Below, piece by piece: positions 1-6,080 of a stretch of DNA of 6,080 bases. Position numbers and translations under genes: made by a program. Below the pieces are notes generated by a model that saw only the letters and a list, made by a program, of their open reading frames with translations, ran no database searches and was not told the DNA's origin. The DNA lies in the NCBI GenBank assembly GCA_003353825.1, contig PIVW01000363.1, positions 1-6,080 on the forward strand, written 5' to 3'. The DNA comes from Chloroflexota bacterium. Lineage in GTDB: Bacteria; Chloroflexota; Anaerolineae; J102. The first letter of the stretch is position 1. Each line of letters opens with the position of its first letter.

Positions 1-138
1 GCCACCCCATCACCTTGTCACCCCATCACCTTGCCACCCCATCACCTTGCCACTCCATCACCTTGTCACCCCATCACCTTGCCACCCCATCACCTTGTCA
101 CCTTGCCACCCCATCACCTTGTCACCTTGCCACTCATG
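1..138. repeat. Octamer tandem array ending in the imuB start codon
   Basis: From position 3 to 138 the sequence divides without gaps into seventeen 8-bp units. Two unit types mostly alternate, CACCCCAT and CACCTTGY, giving a 16-bp higher-order period; in two places an extra CACCTTGY unit breaks the alternation (99-106 and 123-130). Variants are single-base changes, such as CACTCCAT at 51-58. The last unit (131-138) reads CACTCATG and supplies the ATG of the next gene. The first two bases fit the end of another unit, so the array probably continues upstream of the window. It is open in several frames because the units lack stops, which creates spurious His/Pro/Thr-rich open frames. No -10-like AT-rich segment or Shine-Dalgarno sequence is visible in it. 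The periodicity is read directly; any function is unknown. Confidence 0.95.
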
Positions 139-1323
139 CCCATCCTCTCCTGCAACATCCCTGCTTTTCCTTTAGCGCTGATCGCTCGCGCCGAACCAAC
201 TCTACAGGAACGTCCCCTGGCCTTGTACGATCCCCAAGAGCGTGTCCTGGTTGCCACTGCCTCCGCTGGCCGTGCCGGTGTGCAGATCGGCCAAAACGCC
301 AGACAGGCGCGCATTGCCTGCCCGGAACTGGATCTGCGTCCGGCCGATCTACCCCAAGCCCGTACTGAGTTCGAGGCCCTGCTCACAGTGCTCGACGATT
401 ACTCGGATGCCGTGGAGCCGGCCAGCCTGGGACGCGCTTATCTGGCCGCGTCCGATCTCCGAGAAGGCGGCATCGTCCCCTTTTGCCAGGAGATCGGGCG
501 GCGTGTACGCCAGGATTTTGGAGAGGCTCTGCAACCGGCCATCGGCTGCGATCAAGGGAAGTTCACAGCCCATGCTGCCGCTCGCCACACCCGCCCCGGC
601 GCTGTCCGGGTGATTCTGGGCGAGGCGGAGCGCCCCTTTCTGCGCCCTCTATCGGTAACTTTGCTGCCTTTGCCTGCAGAGCGGCAGCGTTTTTTAGGCT
701 ATCTCGGCATCCGCACTTTGGGCCAATTCGCCGATCTGCCGCAGCGGGCCGTTTTCCAGCAGTTTGGGAAACCGGGCCGATTGGCACAGCATTGGGCTCG
801 GGGAGAAGATACCCGTCCGGTGCTGGCGCGCAGCCAACGCCCGATATTCACACGAGCCGTCGATTTCGACCCGCCCTTGGTTTCGACCCCGCCCCTTATT
901 GCCAGCGCCGAACGCCTGCTCTCCCCTTTGCTGTCCCACCTGCAAAACAACCTCCAGGCAGCCCAGGCCTTGCGCGCCACCCTTTTGCTAGATGATGGCG
1001 AGCAGCAAACTCAGGACTGGCGTCTTTCAGCTCCCGCCACCGACCTCAAGCGCTTTCTACACCTGCTGACCAACCACTGGCAAAACATGACCTGGGAGCG
1101 TCCCGCCAGTACCTTGACGCTGAGTCTCAGCGATATCCAGGAAGCGCCCGGCGATCAATTATTGTTGTTTCCGGGCGAAGGCGCGCCCGGCGATCTCTTG
1201 GGCGAACTGATCTCGCAAATGCGTTTGCGTTATGGCGCCGGACGTCTCCTGAGCGCTGAAGTGCCCGACCCCTTGCGGCTCTGGGTGGAAAAACGCGCTC
1301 ACTGGCAGGAGTTCGCCCTATGA
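136..1323 (+). CDS. imuB: ImuB-like catalytically inactive Y-family polymerase protein
   Basis: 395-aa protein of the ImuB branch of Y-family DNA polymerases, which in known mutasomes is a non-catalytic adaptor linking DnaE2 to the beta clamp during translesion synthesis. The N-terminus (NIPAFPLAL, residues 7-15) aligns with the first palm strand, followed by a palm/finger region (about 26-65, RPLALYD and QARIACPEL). The usual SxDEAYLD active-site motif reads SLGRAYLA at 97-104, and the first metal-binding Asp position appears to be N7, so all expected catalytic carboxylates look lost. A helix-hairpin-helix thumb segment follows (LGIRTLGQFADLP, 190-202, then QQFG and ARGEDTRPV to 229). The C-terminal region contains QLLLF (341-345), resembling a beta-clamp-binding motif. 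The ATG at 136 is preferred because family similarity begins there; an in-frame TTG at 31 would add 35 residues encoded wholly by the octamer repeat. No Shine-Dalgarno is visible. The stop overlaps the next start (ATGA). No imuA or lexA is visible upstream. Confidence 0.88.
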   Translation: MPILSCNIPAFPLALIARAEPTLQERPLALYDPQERVLVATASAGRAGVQIGQNARQARIACPELDLRPADLPQARTEFEALLTVLDDYSDAVEPASLGRAYLAASDLREGGIVPFCQEIGRRVRQDFGEALQPAIGCDQGKFTAHAAARHTRPGAVRVILGEAERPFLRPLSVTLLPLPAERQRFLGYLGIRTLGQFADLPQRAVFQQFGKPGRLAQHWARGEDTRPVLARSQRPIFTRAVDFDPPLVSTPPLIASAERLLSPLLSHLQNNLQAAQALRATLLLDDGEQQTQDWRLSAPATDLKRFLHLLTNHWQNMTWERPASTLTLSLSDIQEAPGDQLLLFPGEGAPGDLLGELISQMRLRYGAGRLLSAEVPDPLRLWVEKRAHWQEFAL

Positions 1324-1583
1324 ATGCCCGCCTGTGGCGCGATGGTGAACCCATCGCCATGACATGTGACAAAACCGGCCGGCCTCAGCACTTCCGCTGG
1401 GGTTCGCACACTCATCAAGTCGAGCATGTCTGCAACCGTTGGCGGGTTCATGAAGGTTGGTGGAGGGACAAAGAAAATGGTTGGCGAGAGTACATCAAGA
1501 TCGCCACAAGTGATGGGCTGCTTTGTCTAGTGGTGCGGGATATGCAGAATGATGTTTGGTTTCTGGTGCGGTTGTATGATTAA
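1320..1583 (+). CDS. Small Trp-rich DUF6504-like protein, mutasome-associated
   Basis: 87-aa protein whose ATG overlaps the imuB stop in an ATGA arrangement, implying translational coupling and expression with imuB. It has no signal peptide or membrane segment. It is unusually rich in tryptophan (W6, W27, W41, W47, W48, W55, W80). The pattern GRPQHFRWG (20-28), VCNRWRVHEGWWR (37-49), WREYIKIAT (55-63) and a closing WFLVRLYD (80-87) resembles the DUF6504 family, small beta-rich proteins that I recall being encoded next to DNA polymerase Y/ImuB and DnaE2 genes in Actinobacteria and Chloroflexota. Family assignment is from memory of the pattern, not from a search. Biochemical function is not known; position between imuB and dnaE2 suggests a role in, or regulation of, the mutasome, which is inference. 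Confidence 0.75.
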   Translation: MNARLWRDGEPIAMTCDKTGRPQHFRWGSHTHQVEHVCNRWRVHEGWWRDKENGWREYIKIATSDGLLCLVVRDMQNDVWFLVRLYD

Positions 1584-1584
1584 T

Positions 1585-1610
1585 CGTGGTGCGTGTTGCG
1601 TGGTGCGTAC
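1585..1610. repeat. Short heptamer tandem repeat
   Basis: Immediately after the stop of the small gene there are three tandem 7-bp units: CGTGGTG (1585-1591), CGTGTTG (1592-1598), CGTGGTG (1599-1605), followed by a partial unit CGTAC. It resembles the short tandemly repeated repetitive (STRR) heptamers described in cyanobacteria in period, not in sequence. No terminator-like hairpin with a T tract was seen between this gene and dnaE2. Confidence 0.6.
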
Positions 1611-1653
1611 AGTTCTTCCCTAGCAACTATTCAGCATCCAAGCAACCATCCCA

Positions 1654-1706: not shown

Positions 1707-4700
1707 ATGTCCACCTATATCGAACTACACACTCACAGCTTTTACTCGCTCCTAGATGGTGCCTCTTCACCTGAAGCGCTGCTCGACCGGGCTTCGGCAT
1801 TGCACATGCCCGCCCTGGCTTTGACTGACCACGATAACCTCTATGGCGCCGTGCGTTTCTGGCGAGCGGCAAAGGACCGGGGCATCCACCCTATCATCGG
1901 AGCTGAAATAACCCTCTCGGTCCCGGAGAAATCAGAAAACAACTATCATCTCACCCTTCTGGCCGAAAACCAAACCGGCTATGCCAATCTCTGCCGTCTG
2001 CTCACATCGGCACATCTCGGCCATTCACAATCCGTAGACGACAAGCTCCAAGCTGCAAGCTCCAAGCTGCAAACTCCAAACCGCAATCCGCAATCTGAAA
2101 TCCTCAAAAAACAATTAACAACCAACAGTGAACAGAGAACGGTTAACACAACACCCAATCCTCAACCCTCAACTCCCGACGACTGGCCCGGCAAAACCTC
2201 ACCCCGGCTCAGTTGGGATATCCTTAACGCCCGGCGTCAAGGCTTGATCGCCCTCTCCGGCTGTTGTCAGGGAGCGATCGCCGCCCCCTTGCTTGCCGGG
2301 CAAGCGGCATTGGCACGTACGAACGCCGAACATCTGCGCCGTATCTTCGGCCCCAACAACCTCTTTGTCGAACTGCAGCGCCACCTGTTGCCCCACGAAC
2401 CACCACTCATCCACGAGTTGACCACCATCGCTCGCCAACTCGACCTGCCCCTTATTGCCACCAACAACGTGCATTACGCCGAACGAGCAGGACAACCTCT
2501 TCAGGACGTGATGGTCTGCATCCAGCATCTCACCTCACTGGATGAGGCTGAGGGTCTCCTGCGCCCTAATAGCGAATTTCACCTCAAATCGGATGAGGAG
2601 ATGGCACGGCTCTTTCCGGCGCAACTCGAGGCCATCAAAAACACCCTGGCCATTGCCGAACGCTGCCAGGTCAGCCTGGATTTCAGCGACTATCCATCAT
2701 CCGACCCCGCGAATGGGTATTCTGGACGAGGCTCTTTGCCCGCATTTCCAGTACCTAAAGAGCATACGCCTTTCAGCTATCTGTACGAACTCTGCCAGAA
2801 AGGGCTGCACCGTAAATTCCAACCGGTAACACCCGCCGCCGGCAAACAATTGGCCTACGAATTGGATATCATCGAACGCAGCGGGTTGGCCGGGTATTTC
2901 TTGATTGTCTGGGATATCGTGCGTTTCGCGGGTTCACAGGGTATCCGCTACCAGGGCCGGGGGTCCGCGGCCAATTCATTGGTAGCCTACCTGCTGGATA
3001 TCACACCCGTCGATCCGCTACGCTTCAACCTGCTCTTCGACCGCTTTTTATCCGAAGACAGCCATACAACCCCCGATATCGACATCGATTTCGCCGCCGA
3101 CCGCCGGGAGGAAGTCATCCAGTACGTCTATCGGCGTTATGGCGCCGAACACACTGCCATGGTGTGCAATATCAACACCTTTCGGGCCCGCGCTGCCCTG
3201 CGAGATGTAGGCAGAGCATTGGGCTTGAAGCCGGGCATGATCGACCAGATCCAGCGTGCAACTCGTGTGGATGAGGGAGGGCGCTACGGCTACAAAGATA
3301 TTCGCCAGCAAAACTGGCAGAGGAACACGCCCCCGGCCGAGCCAGGGCTGACCAGCCACCGCTATCGCCAAGCCCCCAGCGATAGCGACAGTTCCCGATA
3401 TGATTCAGCGGACGGTGTCTCAAAAGAGGATGAAGCAGAAACCGCCGGTTCACCTCATGATTTACTCCTGACATTGTATGAGGAGATCGAAGGGGCGCCA
3501 CGCCATCTCTCCATCCACAACGGAGGCATGATCATCACCGCCAGCCCCTTAAACGAGATCGTGCCCTTGGAGCGTGCGACGATGCCGGGACGCGTGGTCA
3601 CGCACTGGAACAAAGACAGCGTCGAGAATGCAGGCCTGATTAAAATCGATCTACTGGGGTTGCGGACGCTGGGAATGATCGAAGAGATCGCCCAGTCCAT
3701 CGAAACACGCACCGGGGTTGCTGCGCCGCTAGACAACCTGCCACTAGACGATCCCGCTATCTATGACGATTTGTGCAAAGCCGATACCATCGGCGCTTTC
3801 CAGGTGGAATCACGGGCACAGGCACAAATGCTGCCCCGCTTGCGCCCCCGTTGTTTCGAAGATATCGTAGTAGAAGTAGCGATTATCCGTCCCGGCCCCA
3901 TCCAGGGCAACATGGTCCACCCTTACTTGCGCCGCCGCCAAGGCCTGGAACCGGTGGCGTACCCGCATCCAGCTCTGGAACCGGCATTGAAAGAGACGTT
4001 GGGCGTGGTGCTGTTTCAGGAGCAAGTGTTGCGCGTGGCCATGATCATCGCCGGCTTCACAGGAGGAGAGGCCGACCAGTTGCGGAGGGCTATGTCTCGG
4101 CAGCGCCCAGATGAAGAGATGGTTAAGCTGGCGCAACGCTTTGTGGTCGGGGCCTTGCAGCAAGGGTTGAGCAAAGAAGAAGCGATCGAGATATTCGGCC
4201 AGTTGGCGGGCTTTGCCTCCTATGGATTTTGCAAAAGCCATGCCGCGGCTTTTGCCCTGGTTGCCTACCAGACCATGTGGCTCAAGCACTACCATCCGCC
4301 CGACTTCTACTGCGCCCTCCTCAACCACCAACCTATGGGTTTTTATGCCCCTTCGGTGATCATGGGGGATGCCCGCAGGCACAACGTTACCCTTTTGCCA
4401 CCTGATATCAACCGCAGTGAGGAAAACTGCACGCTGGAAGGGGATGACATTCGCCTGGGATTTCGTTATGTCAAAGGATTGGGTGCGGCGGCGCGTGAGC
4501 ATTTGCTAACAGTGCGTAACGATCGGCGGGATTCACAGCCAAAATCACACTATAGCGATCTGGTAGACCTGTGCAAACGCACGCATTTGCCAGGCGCTGT
4601 CATCGAAGCGTTGATTCGCGCCGGTGTACTGGACAGCCTGGATCCGGATCGCCGCAAACTGCTCTGGGAATTGGGCACTCTGGATTACCGCCCCCGTTCG

Positions 4701-5123
4701 CTCGAACTGGATACTGAACTCGACCCCGTTGCCTTGCCCGAACTCAGCGAATTCGAACGGATGGGATGGCATCTCGATCTGCTGGGCATGACCCCTGGCG
4801 ACCATATCATGCGCCTCTACCGCCATCACCTGCAGGCGCATGGCATCCTCAGCGCTGCCGATCTAAACCGCCGCCAGGATGGTGAGGTGGTCAAAATCGC
4901 CGGCCAGGTGATCATCCGCCAGCGCCCCTCCACCGCCAAAGGTCATCTCTTTATCAGCTTGGAAGATGAAACCGGCCTGTCCAACCTCATCATCCGCCCC
5001 GCCCTCTATGAAAAACGACGCGAGGTTCTGAGATATGCCCCCATGCTAGGCGCTGTCGGGCGTTTACAACGCGAAGGTGAAGTACGTAGCATTCTAGTCT
5101 TCGATGCCTGGAGCCTGGACTAG
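1707..5123 (+). CDS. dnaE2: Error-prone DNA polymerase III alpha subunit DnaE2
   Basis: 1138-aa C-family DNA polymerase of the DnaE2 type, the catalytic subunit of the ImuA/ImuB/DnaE2 mutasome used for induced mutagenesis and lesion bypass. An N-terminal PHP domain is seen with H8/H10 (HTHS), D41-H42 (TDHD), E67 (GAE), C186 (SGC) and H256 (NNVHY). The palm has PDIDIDF (456-462, with D457 and D459 aligning with the E. coli catalytic pair) and KIDLLGL with D648 as the third carboxylate. DnaE2-typical blocks follow: PRHLSIHNGGM (598-608), FQVESRAQ (698-705), RPGPIQG (728-734), YGFCKSHAAAF (839-849), and a C-terminal OB-fold from about 1061 (VVKIAGQVIIRQRP). Catalytic residues are intact, in contrast to ImuB. 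Two in-frame low-complexity inserts, about residues 106-163 in the PHP domain and 524-582 before PRHL, probably make it longer than usual. The start at 1707 puts the PHP HTHS motif at the expected place; the ribosome binding site is weak. The C-terminus ends without the RSRDFH-like tail that I recall in many DnaE2 proteins. Confidence 0.95.
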   Translation: MSTYIELHTHSFYSLLDGASSPEALLDRASALHMPALALTDHDNLYGAVRFWRAAKDRGIHPIIGAEITLSVPEKSENNYHLTLLAENQTGYANLCRLLTSAHLGHSQSVDDKLQAASSKLQTPNRNPQSEILKKQLTTNSEQRTVNTTPNPQPSTPDDWPGKTSPRLSWDILNARRQGLIALSGCCQGAIAAPLLAGQAALARTNAEHLRRIFGPNNLFVELQRHLLPHEPPLIHELTTIARQLDLPLIATNNVHYAERAGQPLQDVMVCIQHLTSLDEAEGLLRPNSEFHLKSDEEMARLFPAQLEAIKNTLAIAERCQVSLDFSDYPSSDPANGYSGRGSLPAFPVPKEHTPFSYLYELCQKGLHRKFQPVTPAAGKQLAYELDIIERSGLAGYFLIVWDIVRFAGSQGIRYQGRGSAANSLVAYLLDITPVDPLRFNLLFDRFLSEDSHTTPDIDIDFAADRREEVIQYVYRRYGAEHTAMVCNINTFRARAALRDVGRALGLKPGMIDQIQRATRVDEGGRYGYKDIRQQNWQRNTPPAEPGLTSHRYRQAPSDSDSSRYDSADGVSKEDEAETAGSPHDLLLTLYEEIEGAPRHLSIHNGGMIITASPLNEIVPLERATMPGRVVTHWNKDSVENAGLIKIDLLGLRTLGMIEEIAQSIETRTGVAAPLDNLPLDDPAIYDDLCKADTIGAFQVESRAQAQMLPRLRPRCFEDIVVEVAIIRPGPIQGNMVHPYLRRRQGLEPVAYPHPALEPALKETLGVVLFQEQVLRVAMIIAGFTGGEADQLRRAMSRQRPDEEMVKLAQRFVVGALQQGLSKEEAIEIFGQLAGFASYGFCKSHAAAFALVAYQTMWLKHYHPPDFYCALLNHQPMGFYAPSVIMGDARRHNVTLLPPDINRSEENCTLEGDDIRLGFRYVKGLGAAAREHLLTVRNDRRDSQPKSHYSDLVDLCKRTHLPGAVIEALIRAGVLDSLDPDRRKLLWELGTLDYRPRSLELDTELDPVALPELSEFERMGWHLDLLGMTPGDHIMRLYRHHLQAHGILSAADLNRRQDGEVVKIAGQVIIRQRPSTAKGHLFISLEDETGLSNLIIRPALYEKRREVLRYAPMLGAVGRLQREGEVRSILVFDAWSLD
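2042..2174. repeat. Degenerate heptamer array inside the dnaE2 PHP domain
   Basis: The 133 bp divide into nineteen 7-bp units. The first four alternate CAAGCTC and CAAGCTG perfectly; the next four are close variants (CAAACTC, CAAACCG, CAATCCG, CAATCTG); later units drift (CAATTAA, CAACCAA, CAGTGAA, CAGAGAA) but 12 of the first 14 still begin with CA at the 7-bp register. The array stays open in the dnaE2 frame and encodes a Gln/Asn/Ser/Thr/Pro-rich stretch (about residues 112-156) where other DnaE2 proteins go directly from the AHL segment to PRLSW. Codons differ clearly from the flanks: A-rich and T-poor against GC-rich neighbours. Confidence 0.85.
3360..3387. repeat. Perfect 9-bp inverted repeat inside dnaE2
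   Basis: CGCTATCGC (3360-3368) and GCGATAGCG (3379-3387) are perfect reverse complements separated by 10 bases. They lie within the second low-complexity insert of DnaE2 (about residues 524-582; the hairpin covers residues 552-561), a region rich in Ser, Asp and Pro with no counterpart that I recall in other DnaE2 proteins. It may be the remnant of a palindromic mobile unit, or an mRNA hairpin. Confidence 0.75.
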
Positions 5124-5149
5124 TACATCGAGGCGTAAGTAATTGTGCG

Positions 5150-5213
5150 GTTCGTAATAGGTGATGCATCGCCGTTACAACTGCGCAAGAGCGCTAAAGC
5201 GCTTACTACAAAC
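5150..5213. repeat. REP/MITE-like palindromic unit with two hairpins
   Basis: The ends are imperfect inverted repeats: GTTCGTAATAG (5150-5160) against the complement of TTACTACAAAC (5203-5213), matching 8 of 11 with all differences being transitions. Inside are two hairpins. The first, 5154-5178, pairs GTAAT with GTTAC and GGTG with CGCC around the loop ATGCAT, with one bulged A. The second, 5190-5203, pairs AGCGC with GCGCT around a TAAA loop. Neither is followed by a T tract, so neither looks like a classical intrinsic terminator, though they could stabilise the 3' end of the dnaE2 transcript. Confidence 0.5.
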
Positions 5214-5292
5214 TGTCACCGTACTTATGCCGTTCTGAACTGGTGAAACGTGATGACCATCGGCCACACCCTATCTTGTCGAGATTTTTCAA

Positions 5293-5323
5293 ACAAAATG
5301 CTTGACAAAATGCGTACAAAATG
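5293..5323 (+). promoter_or_regulatory. Three ACAAAATG direct repeats, candidate CarH operator
   Basis: ACAAAATG occurs three times in the same orientation at 5293-5300, 5305-5312 and 5316-5323, with starts 12 and 11 bp apart. The second copy includes the end of the -35 hexamer (TTGACA) and the third lies in the promoter spacer. From published work on Thermus CarH, a tetramer places three DNA-binding domains head-to-tail on tandem repeats of about 11 bp overlapping the -35 element. The arrangement here matches that geometry closely, apart from one extra base between the first two copies. Binding by the downstream protein is inferred. Confidence 0.6.
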
Positions 5324-5330
5324 ATAGGTT
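5302..5330 (+). promoter_or_regulatory. Promoter P1 upstream of the MerR/CarH gene
   Basis: A consensus -35 TTGACA (5302-5307) is followed after 17 bp by TAGGTT (5325-5330), a weak -10 (three of six) that is preceded by TG at 5322-5323 in the extended -10 position. Transcription would begin near 5337, leaving a leader of about 118 nt before the ATG at 5455. The direct repeats described separately cover the -35 and spacer, so a bound repressor would block RNA polymerase. Confidence 0.6.
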
Positions 5331-5454: not shown

Positions 5455-6080
5455 ATGCATACAACAGCCTTAGCTACCCCGACCTTCAACTTGAAAGCCG
5501 TCGTCAAAGAGACAGGGCTCAAACCGGACACCTTACGTGCCTGGGAACGGCGCTACGGTTTACCTCAACCCCAGCGCAGCAGCGGACGACATCGCTTGTA
5601 TTGCCAGCATGATATCGACACACTCAAATGGCTGGTAGCTCGCCAGGAAGAAGGGTTGTCTATCAGCAGGGCCGTGGACCTCTGGCACAATCTACTAGAA
5701 GAGGGACAAGACCCCCTAGTGACGATGCCTGTGGCCTCTCCGCTGTCCAGCACAAGCACAAAACCGCTGGTTTCAGGTGACGCCCAGGCATCGTTGCGGG
5801 GGGCGTGGCTCGACGCCTGTCTCAACTTCGATGAACCCACTGCCGACAACGCCCTCACCCTGGCTTTTGCCCTTTTCCCCGCCGAAACCGTCTGTCTCGA
5901 CATCATTCGCTGGGGGCTGGCCAAAGTTGGCAACGAATGGCATGCAGGAAAGGTCACCGTACAGCAAGAACATTTCACAACGGCCATGGCCATGCGGCGT
6001 ATGCAAACGCTCATAGCCGCCGCTGCCCCCCCAACCCGGCAAGAACGCATCCTCATCGCTTGCCCACCCGAAGAAGCCCA
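5455..6080 (+). CDS. carH: CarH/LitR-like B12-dependent MerR photoreceptor (partial)
   Basis: The first 208 residues of a MerR-family regulator that runs off the window. Residues 11-80 are a MerR winged-helix DNA-binding domain ([27 protein letters not shown], given as positions 11-37, then SGRHRLY at 43-49). A flexible Ser/Thr/Pro linker (about 86-108) leads to a helical cap domain (about 110-190) containing W162, then nine residues, then E172-H173. This W-x9-EH motif is the signature of CarH photoreceptors, where these residues contact the upper 5'-deoxyadenosyl face of adenosylcobalamin. The Rossmann-like B12-binding domain begins at about 198 ([10 protein letters not shown]), but the part carrying the cobalt-ligand histidine lies beyond the end. 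In the family, the AdoCbl-bound tetramer represses in the dark and light disassembles it, derepressing carotenoid or photoprotection genes. The ATG at 5455 is the natural start, placed just before the HTH; no clear Shine-Dalgarno precedes it. Targets cannot be seen here beyond its own promoter. Confidence 0.85.

What the first reader, a model, noticed from the sequence alone, without database searches (positions are those of the whole stretch)
2025..2190. Heptamer tandem array captured in frame inside the DnaE2 PHP domain
A 19-unit degenerate 7-bp array (133 bp) of the kind usually found between genes lies within an essential-looking domain and is translated as a Q/N/S/T/P-rich loop of about 50 residues. 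Because 7 is not a multiple of 3, each single-unit change shifts the frame; only changes of three units keep it. The gene could therefore be switched off or on by repeat slippage, giving a contingency locus for the mutator polymerase itself. Decay of the units from a perfect 5' end to a divergent 3' end suggests age or recent re-expansion at the 5' end.
Basis: partly seen in the sequence, partly recalled or inferred. Interest (0 to 1): 0.75.

Follow-up and report, generated by a model that had tools for sequence, protein, structure and literature searches.

The report
Heptamer repeat array inside error-prone polymerase
A stretch of seven-letter DNA repeats sits in frame in a probably floppy loop of an error-prone DNA polymerase gene, and it looks like tolerated, drifting repeat DNA rather than an on/off switch.

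Summary
Window 2042-2178 is a 7-bp array (19 units plus 2 bp; lag-7 identity 0.685 against 0.31 in shuffles), read in frame inside a complete dnaE2 (1707-5123).

The switch interpretation is not supported. The longest perfect 7-bp tract is 15 bp. A sister locus (L001, 94% identical) has a rebuilt array at the same site, 51 bp shorter: seven units plus 2 bp, so the frame was kept by an off-register step. The rest of the gene is under purifying selection (pN/pS 0.17); the array is near 1.0 (about 30 codons). In 24 of 24 relatives with both flanks the site is in frame and open; 23 of them have only 3-42 nt there. OFF alleles were sought in proteins with little power.

Such arrays are scattered through some related Chloroflexota genomes: 95 in 1.4 Mb of five genomes, none in 369 kb of four others. 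24 of the 95 lie in long open frames, fewer than random intervals do. The loop is a 5-residue turn in solved Pol III alpha.

Best reading: a locally grown heptamer array tolerated in a permissive PHP loop and held in frame by selection; a coding, non-triplet variant of known heptamer repeats.

The parts
1707..5123 (+). dnaE2 (error-prone DNA polymerase, 1138 aa), host gene of the array
   Evidence: NCBIfam PRK05672 1064 bits vs cutoff 939; PHP, Pol III alpha, finger and HHH_6 domains
2042..2178 (+). degenerate 7-bp tandem array, 19 units plus 2 bp and a short edge, translated as about 46 residues
   Evidence: lag-7 identity 0.685 vs 0.306 in shuffles; unit list
2042..2072 (+). most regular part: 14-mer CAAGCTCCAAGCTG in about 2.2 copies
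   Evidence: TRF; longest perfect lag-14 tract 31 bp
2022..2186 (+). insert relative to most homologues (residues 106-160), filling a short PHP turn
   Evidence: 121-protein alignment; Taq Pol III alpha residues 118 and 124 flank it; pLDDT under 50 for residues 106-165
136..1323 (+). imuB-like Y-family gene upstream in the same direction
   Evidence: Pfam IMS E 3.3e-14; the name imuB rests on this and its place beside dnaE2

Best explanation
This is one member of a class of degenerate heptamer arrays scattered through some related Chloroflexota genomes, lying in a permissive loop of the DnaE2 PHP domain. Shown: it is in frame, lineage-specific, fast-changing, of low model confidence, in a gene otherwise under purifying selection, and arrays of the same kind are common elsewhere in several related genomes. 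Inferred: it grew by local duplication of neighbouring units with continuing point mutation, so that units drift; alleles that break the frame are lost by selection on the polymerase, so only net multiples of 3 persist, here seven units plus a 2-bp off-register step; the loop does little beyond not interfering.
For: Sister locus with a rebuilt array, 51 bp shorter, in frame. pN/pS 0.17 in the rest of the gene, about 1.0 in the array. Unit identity falls with distance from 0.68 to 0.33, and from 0.77 to 0.60 in 40 other arrays. 95 lag-7 arrays in 1.415 Mb of five related genomes, with lags 5, 10, 11 and 13 giving 0-2 per genome. 24 of 24 relatives in frame and open at the site, 23 with 3-42 nt there. 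Arrays between or inside Pfam domains of three other genes. Arrays in other loops of dnaE2 in two relatives.
Against: Both sisters keep an array at the same site, and P0001 keeps the window's tract at 55 of 55 residues, which a useful linker would also do. pN/pS in the array rests on about 30 codons and an uncertain alignment. The step of seven units plus 2 bp is one case, and could be one complex event. Low model confidence is not special to inserts: conserved residues 598-647 are also under 50. Four DnaE2-bearing relatives have no arrays.
Confidence: 0.8

Rival explanations
1. Contingency locus: slippage by single units switches the mutator polymerase off and on.
For: A change of 1 or 2 units would stop translation after 125-141 aa, 3 units would restore the frame. 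The site changes quickly.
Against: Longest perfect 7-bp tract 15 bp in the window, 19 bp in the sister. The one observed length change kept the frame. 24 of 24 relatives in frame at the site, though 23 of them lack the insert. The best truncated-length protein was 76% identical, so none is a near copy among the 120 listed of 3045; only three near sequences are known, so power is low.
Confidence: 0.06
2. The tract has become a functional disordered linker (binding or tethering) and is kept for that.
For: Present in the window, P0001 and L001 at the same place; relatives also carry inserts there.
Against: The residues are not conserved: the sister's tract is 17 residues shorter and mostly different; pN/pS about 1.0; most homologues have no insert.
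Confidence: 0.12
3. Assembly or binning artefact.
For: The known relatives are metagenome assemblies (titles).
Against: Three separate sequences carry an array there, two with the same tract, and the frame is open across it in each.
Confidence: 0.02

Closest known systems
Heptanucleotide simple sequence repeats of bacteria (PMC4692102, passages; PMC4679880, Introduction; Mrazek et al. 2007 only as reported there)
   Same: 7-bp unit, spread over the genome, mostly outside genes
   Different: Here the units are degenerate and drifting and the array lies in the middle of a conserved gene
Borg tandem repeats that form disordered protein regions (PMC9879509, passages)
   Same: Tandem repeats in ORFs, fast-evolving, in frame, disordered product
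   Different: Borg ORF repeats are near-perfect with units divisible by three; here the unit is 7 bp and only total length keeps the frame
Palindromic or MITE elements captured in frame in proteins (PMC5896051, passages; Rickettsia elements, Ogata et al. 2000, seen only as a citation there)
   Same: Repeat DNA of intergenic kind found in frame within genes
   Different: Those are mobile palindromic elements; no palindrome or transposition was looked for or shown here
Phase-variable simple-sequence loci, e.g. Neisseria (PMC5084427, listing and start of abstract)
   Same: A non-triplet repeat in an ORF could shift the frame
   Different: No long perfect tract and no OFF allele seen
Prokaryotic satellites survey (PMC6749651, passages)
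   Same: Reports families derived from heptamers in Bacteria, and lists Chloroflexus aurantiacus among its table rows
   Different: The passages seen do not describe heptamers in frame in conserved genes

Membership tests
DnaE2 / ImuC error-prone polymerase | Score above the curated family cutoff | tested here: met
   PRK05672, 1064 vs 939 bits
DnaE2 / ImuC error-prone polymerase | imuB-like neighbour | tested here: met
   IMS-family gene at 136-1323, same strand; an imuA gene was not looked for
Heptanucleotide repeat arrays | 7-bp period beyond chance | tested here: met
Heptanucleotide repeat arrays | Many arrays over the genome, mainly outside genes | tested here: met
   In relatives, not in the window's own genome, which is not held: 95 arrays in 1.415 Mb; in open frames 4 of 22 (G001) and 17 of 62 (G008) against 629 and 802 of 1000 random intervals
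Phase-variable contingency locus | Long perfect repeat tract able to slip | tested here: not met
   Longest perfect 7-bp tract 15 bp; 14-bp tract 31 bp
Phase-variable contingency locus | ON and OFF alleles in a population | not testable with these tools
   No reads; protein search has little power
In-frame captured mobile element (MITE, palindromic element) | Palindromic or terminal-repeat structure and dispersed copies of the same element | not tested
   Inverted repeats were not searched; the exact 13-mer of the array occurs once in G001

The most novel reading that the evidence does not exclude
In array-rich Chloroflexota, non-triplet heptamer arrays are a continuing source of new disordered loops and interdomain linkers in core enzymes, kept in frame by compensating off-register indels, so that selection on net length modulo 3 can be read directly from paired alleles.
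Probability: 0.35. Interest if true: 0.55.

Novelty: new variant of a known kind. Interest (0 to 1): 0.35.

Why it matters
Two papers seen here say that repeats inside genes tend to have units divisible by three: all of those in Borg ORFs (PMC9879509), and those most likely to be found in coding regions of bacteria (Mrazek et al. as reported in PMC4679880). Here a 7-bp array is in frame in a conserved polymerase, and similar arrays separate known domains in other enzymes. If general, it is a route from intergenic repeat DNA to new disordered protein sequence, and paired alleles give a simple test of selection on reading frame.

Tried and rejected
Rejected: mutator switch (short perfect tracts, in-frame alleles); DnaE2 as sufficient cause of the arrays (0 arrays in 369 kb of four genomes with strong matches to the window's DnaE2; no DnaE2-negative genome was sampled); ordinary conserved linker (absent from most homologues).

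Led nowhere: the exact 13-mer of the array occurs once in G001, at dnaE2; the longer degenerate motif with up to 3 mismatches occurs 9 times against 2 for the reversed control, so this heptamer is not the one amplified there. A test of 101 of the 120 truncated-length proteins for heptad periodicity after residue 95 found 1 at lag 7, as at lags 5 and 6; the window's own tract scores below that threshold, so the test cannot detect a window-like tract. Paper searches on Chloroflexi with heptamers and on dnaE2 with phase variation listed nothing on this case; only the best 12 of 35 and 8 of 79 were listed, and most were not opened.

Full report
What is there. Window 2042-2178 is a degenerate tandem array of 7-bp units. 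Lag-7 identity is 0.685 against 0.306 +/- 0.039 in 2000 dinucleotide shuffles, and the weak 3' part (2109-2178) alone gives 0.63, reached by 0 of 1000 shuffles. There are 19 whole units and two further bases before unique sequence. The frame is that of a 1138-aa dnaE2 (1707-5123) with PHP, Pol III alpha, finger and HHH domains, above the NCBIfam cutoff for error-prone DNA polymerase. An IMS-family gene (imuB-like) and a DUF6504 gene lie upstream.

Where it sits. In an alignment of 121 proteins (the window and the best 120 listed of 8000 scored hits) the residues between 105 and 161 are an insert: median length 0, at least 8 aa in 24 of 121 and at least 20 aa in 12 of 121; the window and its near copy P0001 are among these. 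In solved Taq Pol III alpha, query residue 104 aligns to 118 and residue 165 to 124, so the array fills a 5-residue turn. The AlphaFold2 model (65 sequences, mean pLDDT 71, pTM 0.62) has pLDDT under 50 for residues 106-165, between a helix at 89-104 and PHP elements at about 90. Low confidence is not confined to inserts (conserved 598-647 is also under 50), so this agrees with disorder but does not prove it. Exposure was not computed.

How it evolves. The nearest locus, L001 (record title: MAG Chloroflexi bacterium isolate Bse_26), is 94.4% identical over 5112 aligned positions. It has an array at the same point with mostly different units, 51 bp shorter. Counted in units, the window has 19 x 7 + 2 bp where L001 has 12 x 7 bp. 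Seven units alone would have shifted the frame; the 2-bp step restores it. This is one case, and the order of events is unknown. Outside the array pN/pS between the window and L001 is 0.17; inside it is about 1.0, on about 30 codons of uncertain alignment with 5 synonymous and 17 other differences. Identity between units falls with their separation, from 0.68 (neighbours) to 0.33 (eight apart), as expected of local duplication with drift; in L001 the fall is weaker, 0.75 to 0.61. Forty other arrays of at least 84 nt average 0.77 falling to 0.60.

Is it a switch? A change of one or two units at the 5' end would stop translation after 125-141 aa; three units would not. But the longest perfect 7-bp tract is 15 bp in the window and 19 bp in L001, and the longest 14-bp tract is 31 and 23 bp. 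I checked 34 locus entries: L001, L002, the 30 loci returned for 150 genomes searched, and two re-fetched stretches. Four are repeats, leaving 30 distinct loci. Both flanks of the site are present in 24, and all 24 are in frame and open there; one (L083) has a stop elsewhere. Between the flanks 23 of the 24 have 3-42 nt and L001 has 108, against 159-204 in the window by the matching alignment ends. These relatives were picked by a search that favours good matches, and 23 lack the insert, so they say more about its novelty than about switching. A search with the first 158 residues for proteins of truncated length listed 120 of 3045 hits, the best at 76% identity. I printed 38 of the 39 listed that lie on contigs over 3 kb and saw no clear heptads at their ends. 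A count over 101 of the 120 agrees, but the window's own tract would not pass its threshold, so this line of evidence is weak.

A scattered class. In stretches of five related genomes not picked for arrays I found 22 lag-7 arrays in 533 kb (G001), 62 in 400 kb (G008), 8 in 300 kb (G049), 3 in 137 kb (G004) and 0 in 45 kb (G011): 95 in 1.415 Mb. G008 was chosen after a motif search had shown many heptamers in it, so its density is not typical. Lags 5, 10, 11 and 13 gave 0-2 per genome. Lag 8 gave 20 in G001 and 8 in G008; lags 6, 9 and 12 gave up to 14 in G008; lags 14 and 16 are multiples. Four further relatives with strong matches to the window's DnaE2 had no lag-7 arrays in 369 kb. In stretches fetched because of a motif or the gene there were 9 more arrays in G001, 4 in G004 and 8 in G011, not counted above. 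The window's own genome is not held.

In genes or not. 24 of the 95 lie in a frame open for at least 150 nt on both sides: 4 of 22 (G001), 17 of 62 (G008), 2 of 8 (G049), 1 of 3 (G004). Random 70-nt intervals meet that test in 629, 802, 752 and 709 of 1000, so arrays avoid open frames. Some of the 24 may be chance frames.

Other genes. I gave Pfam 10 of the 19 ORF candidates; two (L184, L185) come from motif-picked stretches. Nine of 10 had a domain. In three the array lies between or inside matches: lipoyl (4-76), array (98-134), E3-binding (134-167) in L134; 2Fe-2S (17-94), array (91-115), oxidoreductase (124-454) in L190; and within a methyltransferase match in L171. In six it lies to one side of the matched domain, and L138 has none.

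Recurrence in DnaE2. Lag-7 DNA arrays also lie in two other dnaE2 genes: G011 (N-terminus and a second PHP loop) and L002 (second PHP loop). G011 and G004 are matched to the proteins P0002 and P0004 by equal contig lengths, an inference. Protein inserts at the window's own site in other relatives include heptad-periodic ones (P0003, the very short P0013, weaker P0009 and its copy P0011) and others without heptads (P0010, P0015, P0016 and more). That some of these are other dispersed repeats is recalled from seeing such peptides, not tested.

Literature. Heptamers are reported as over-represented and mainly intergenic (PMC4692102, passages), and a 7-nt polymerase contact was proposed for them (PMC4679880, Introduction). 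Borg repeats in ORFs have units divisible by three (PMC9879509, passages). In-frame MITEs are described in PMC5896051 (passages). A survey of prokaryotic satellites mentions heptamer-derived families and Chloroflexus aurantiacus (PMC6749651, passages). No title listed or 60 describes heptamers in frame in Chloroflexota genes or in dnaE2; these lists are capped and the library is open access only.

Conclusion. It is best read as a tolerated, locally grown, drifting heptamer array in a permissive loop, held in frame by selection on the gene. Switching has not been excluded in a population, but nothing found favours it.

Noticed in passing
window 1-133: An array of 8- and 16-bp units (CACCTTGC/CACCCCAT type) ends just before the ATG at 136 of the imuB-like gene; it also differs in L001. 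Lag-8 arrays number 20 in 533 kb of G001.
   Followed up: partly
window 1585-1612: A short CGTGGTG/CGTGTTG heptamer array lies between the DUF6504 gene and dnaE2; the same length in L001.
   Followed up: no
window 1320-1583: A DUF6504 gene lies between the imuB-like gene and dnaE2; in P0221 a similar-looking N-terminal stretch precedes a DnaE2 start in one ORF (by eye).
   Followed up: no
window 5124-5330: The intergenic region after dnaE2 has 18- and 30-bp gaps against L001, and 12-bp repeats at 5293-5323.
   Followed up: no
window 5455-6078: MerR / B12-binding regulator, CarH-like but below the CarH cutoff (97 vs 400 bits over a cut-off ORF).
   Followed up: no
P0121, P0123, P0127, P0131 and others: N-terminal DnaE2-like fragments on long contigs end in what look like frame-shifted tails; they may be sequencing errors or decayed copies.
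   Followed up: partly
G004: The motif read backwards, used as control, matches G004 39 + 25 times, so G004 has its own abundant heptamer; the preferred heptamers seem to differ between genomes.
   Followed up: no
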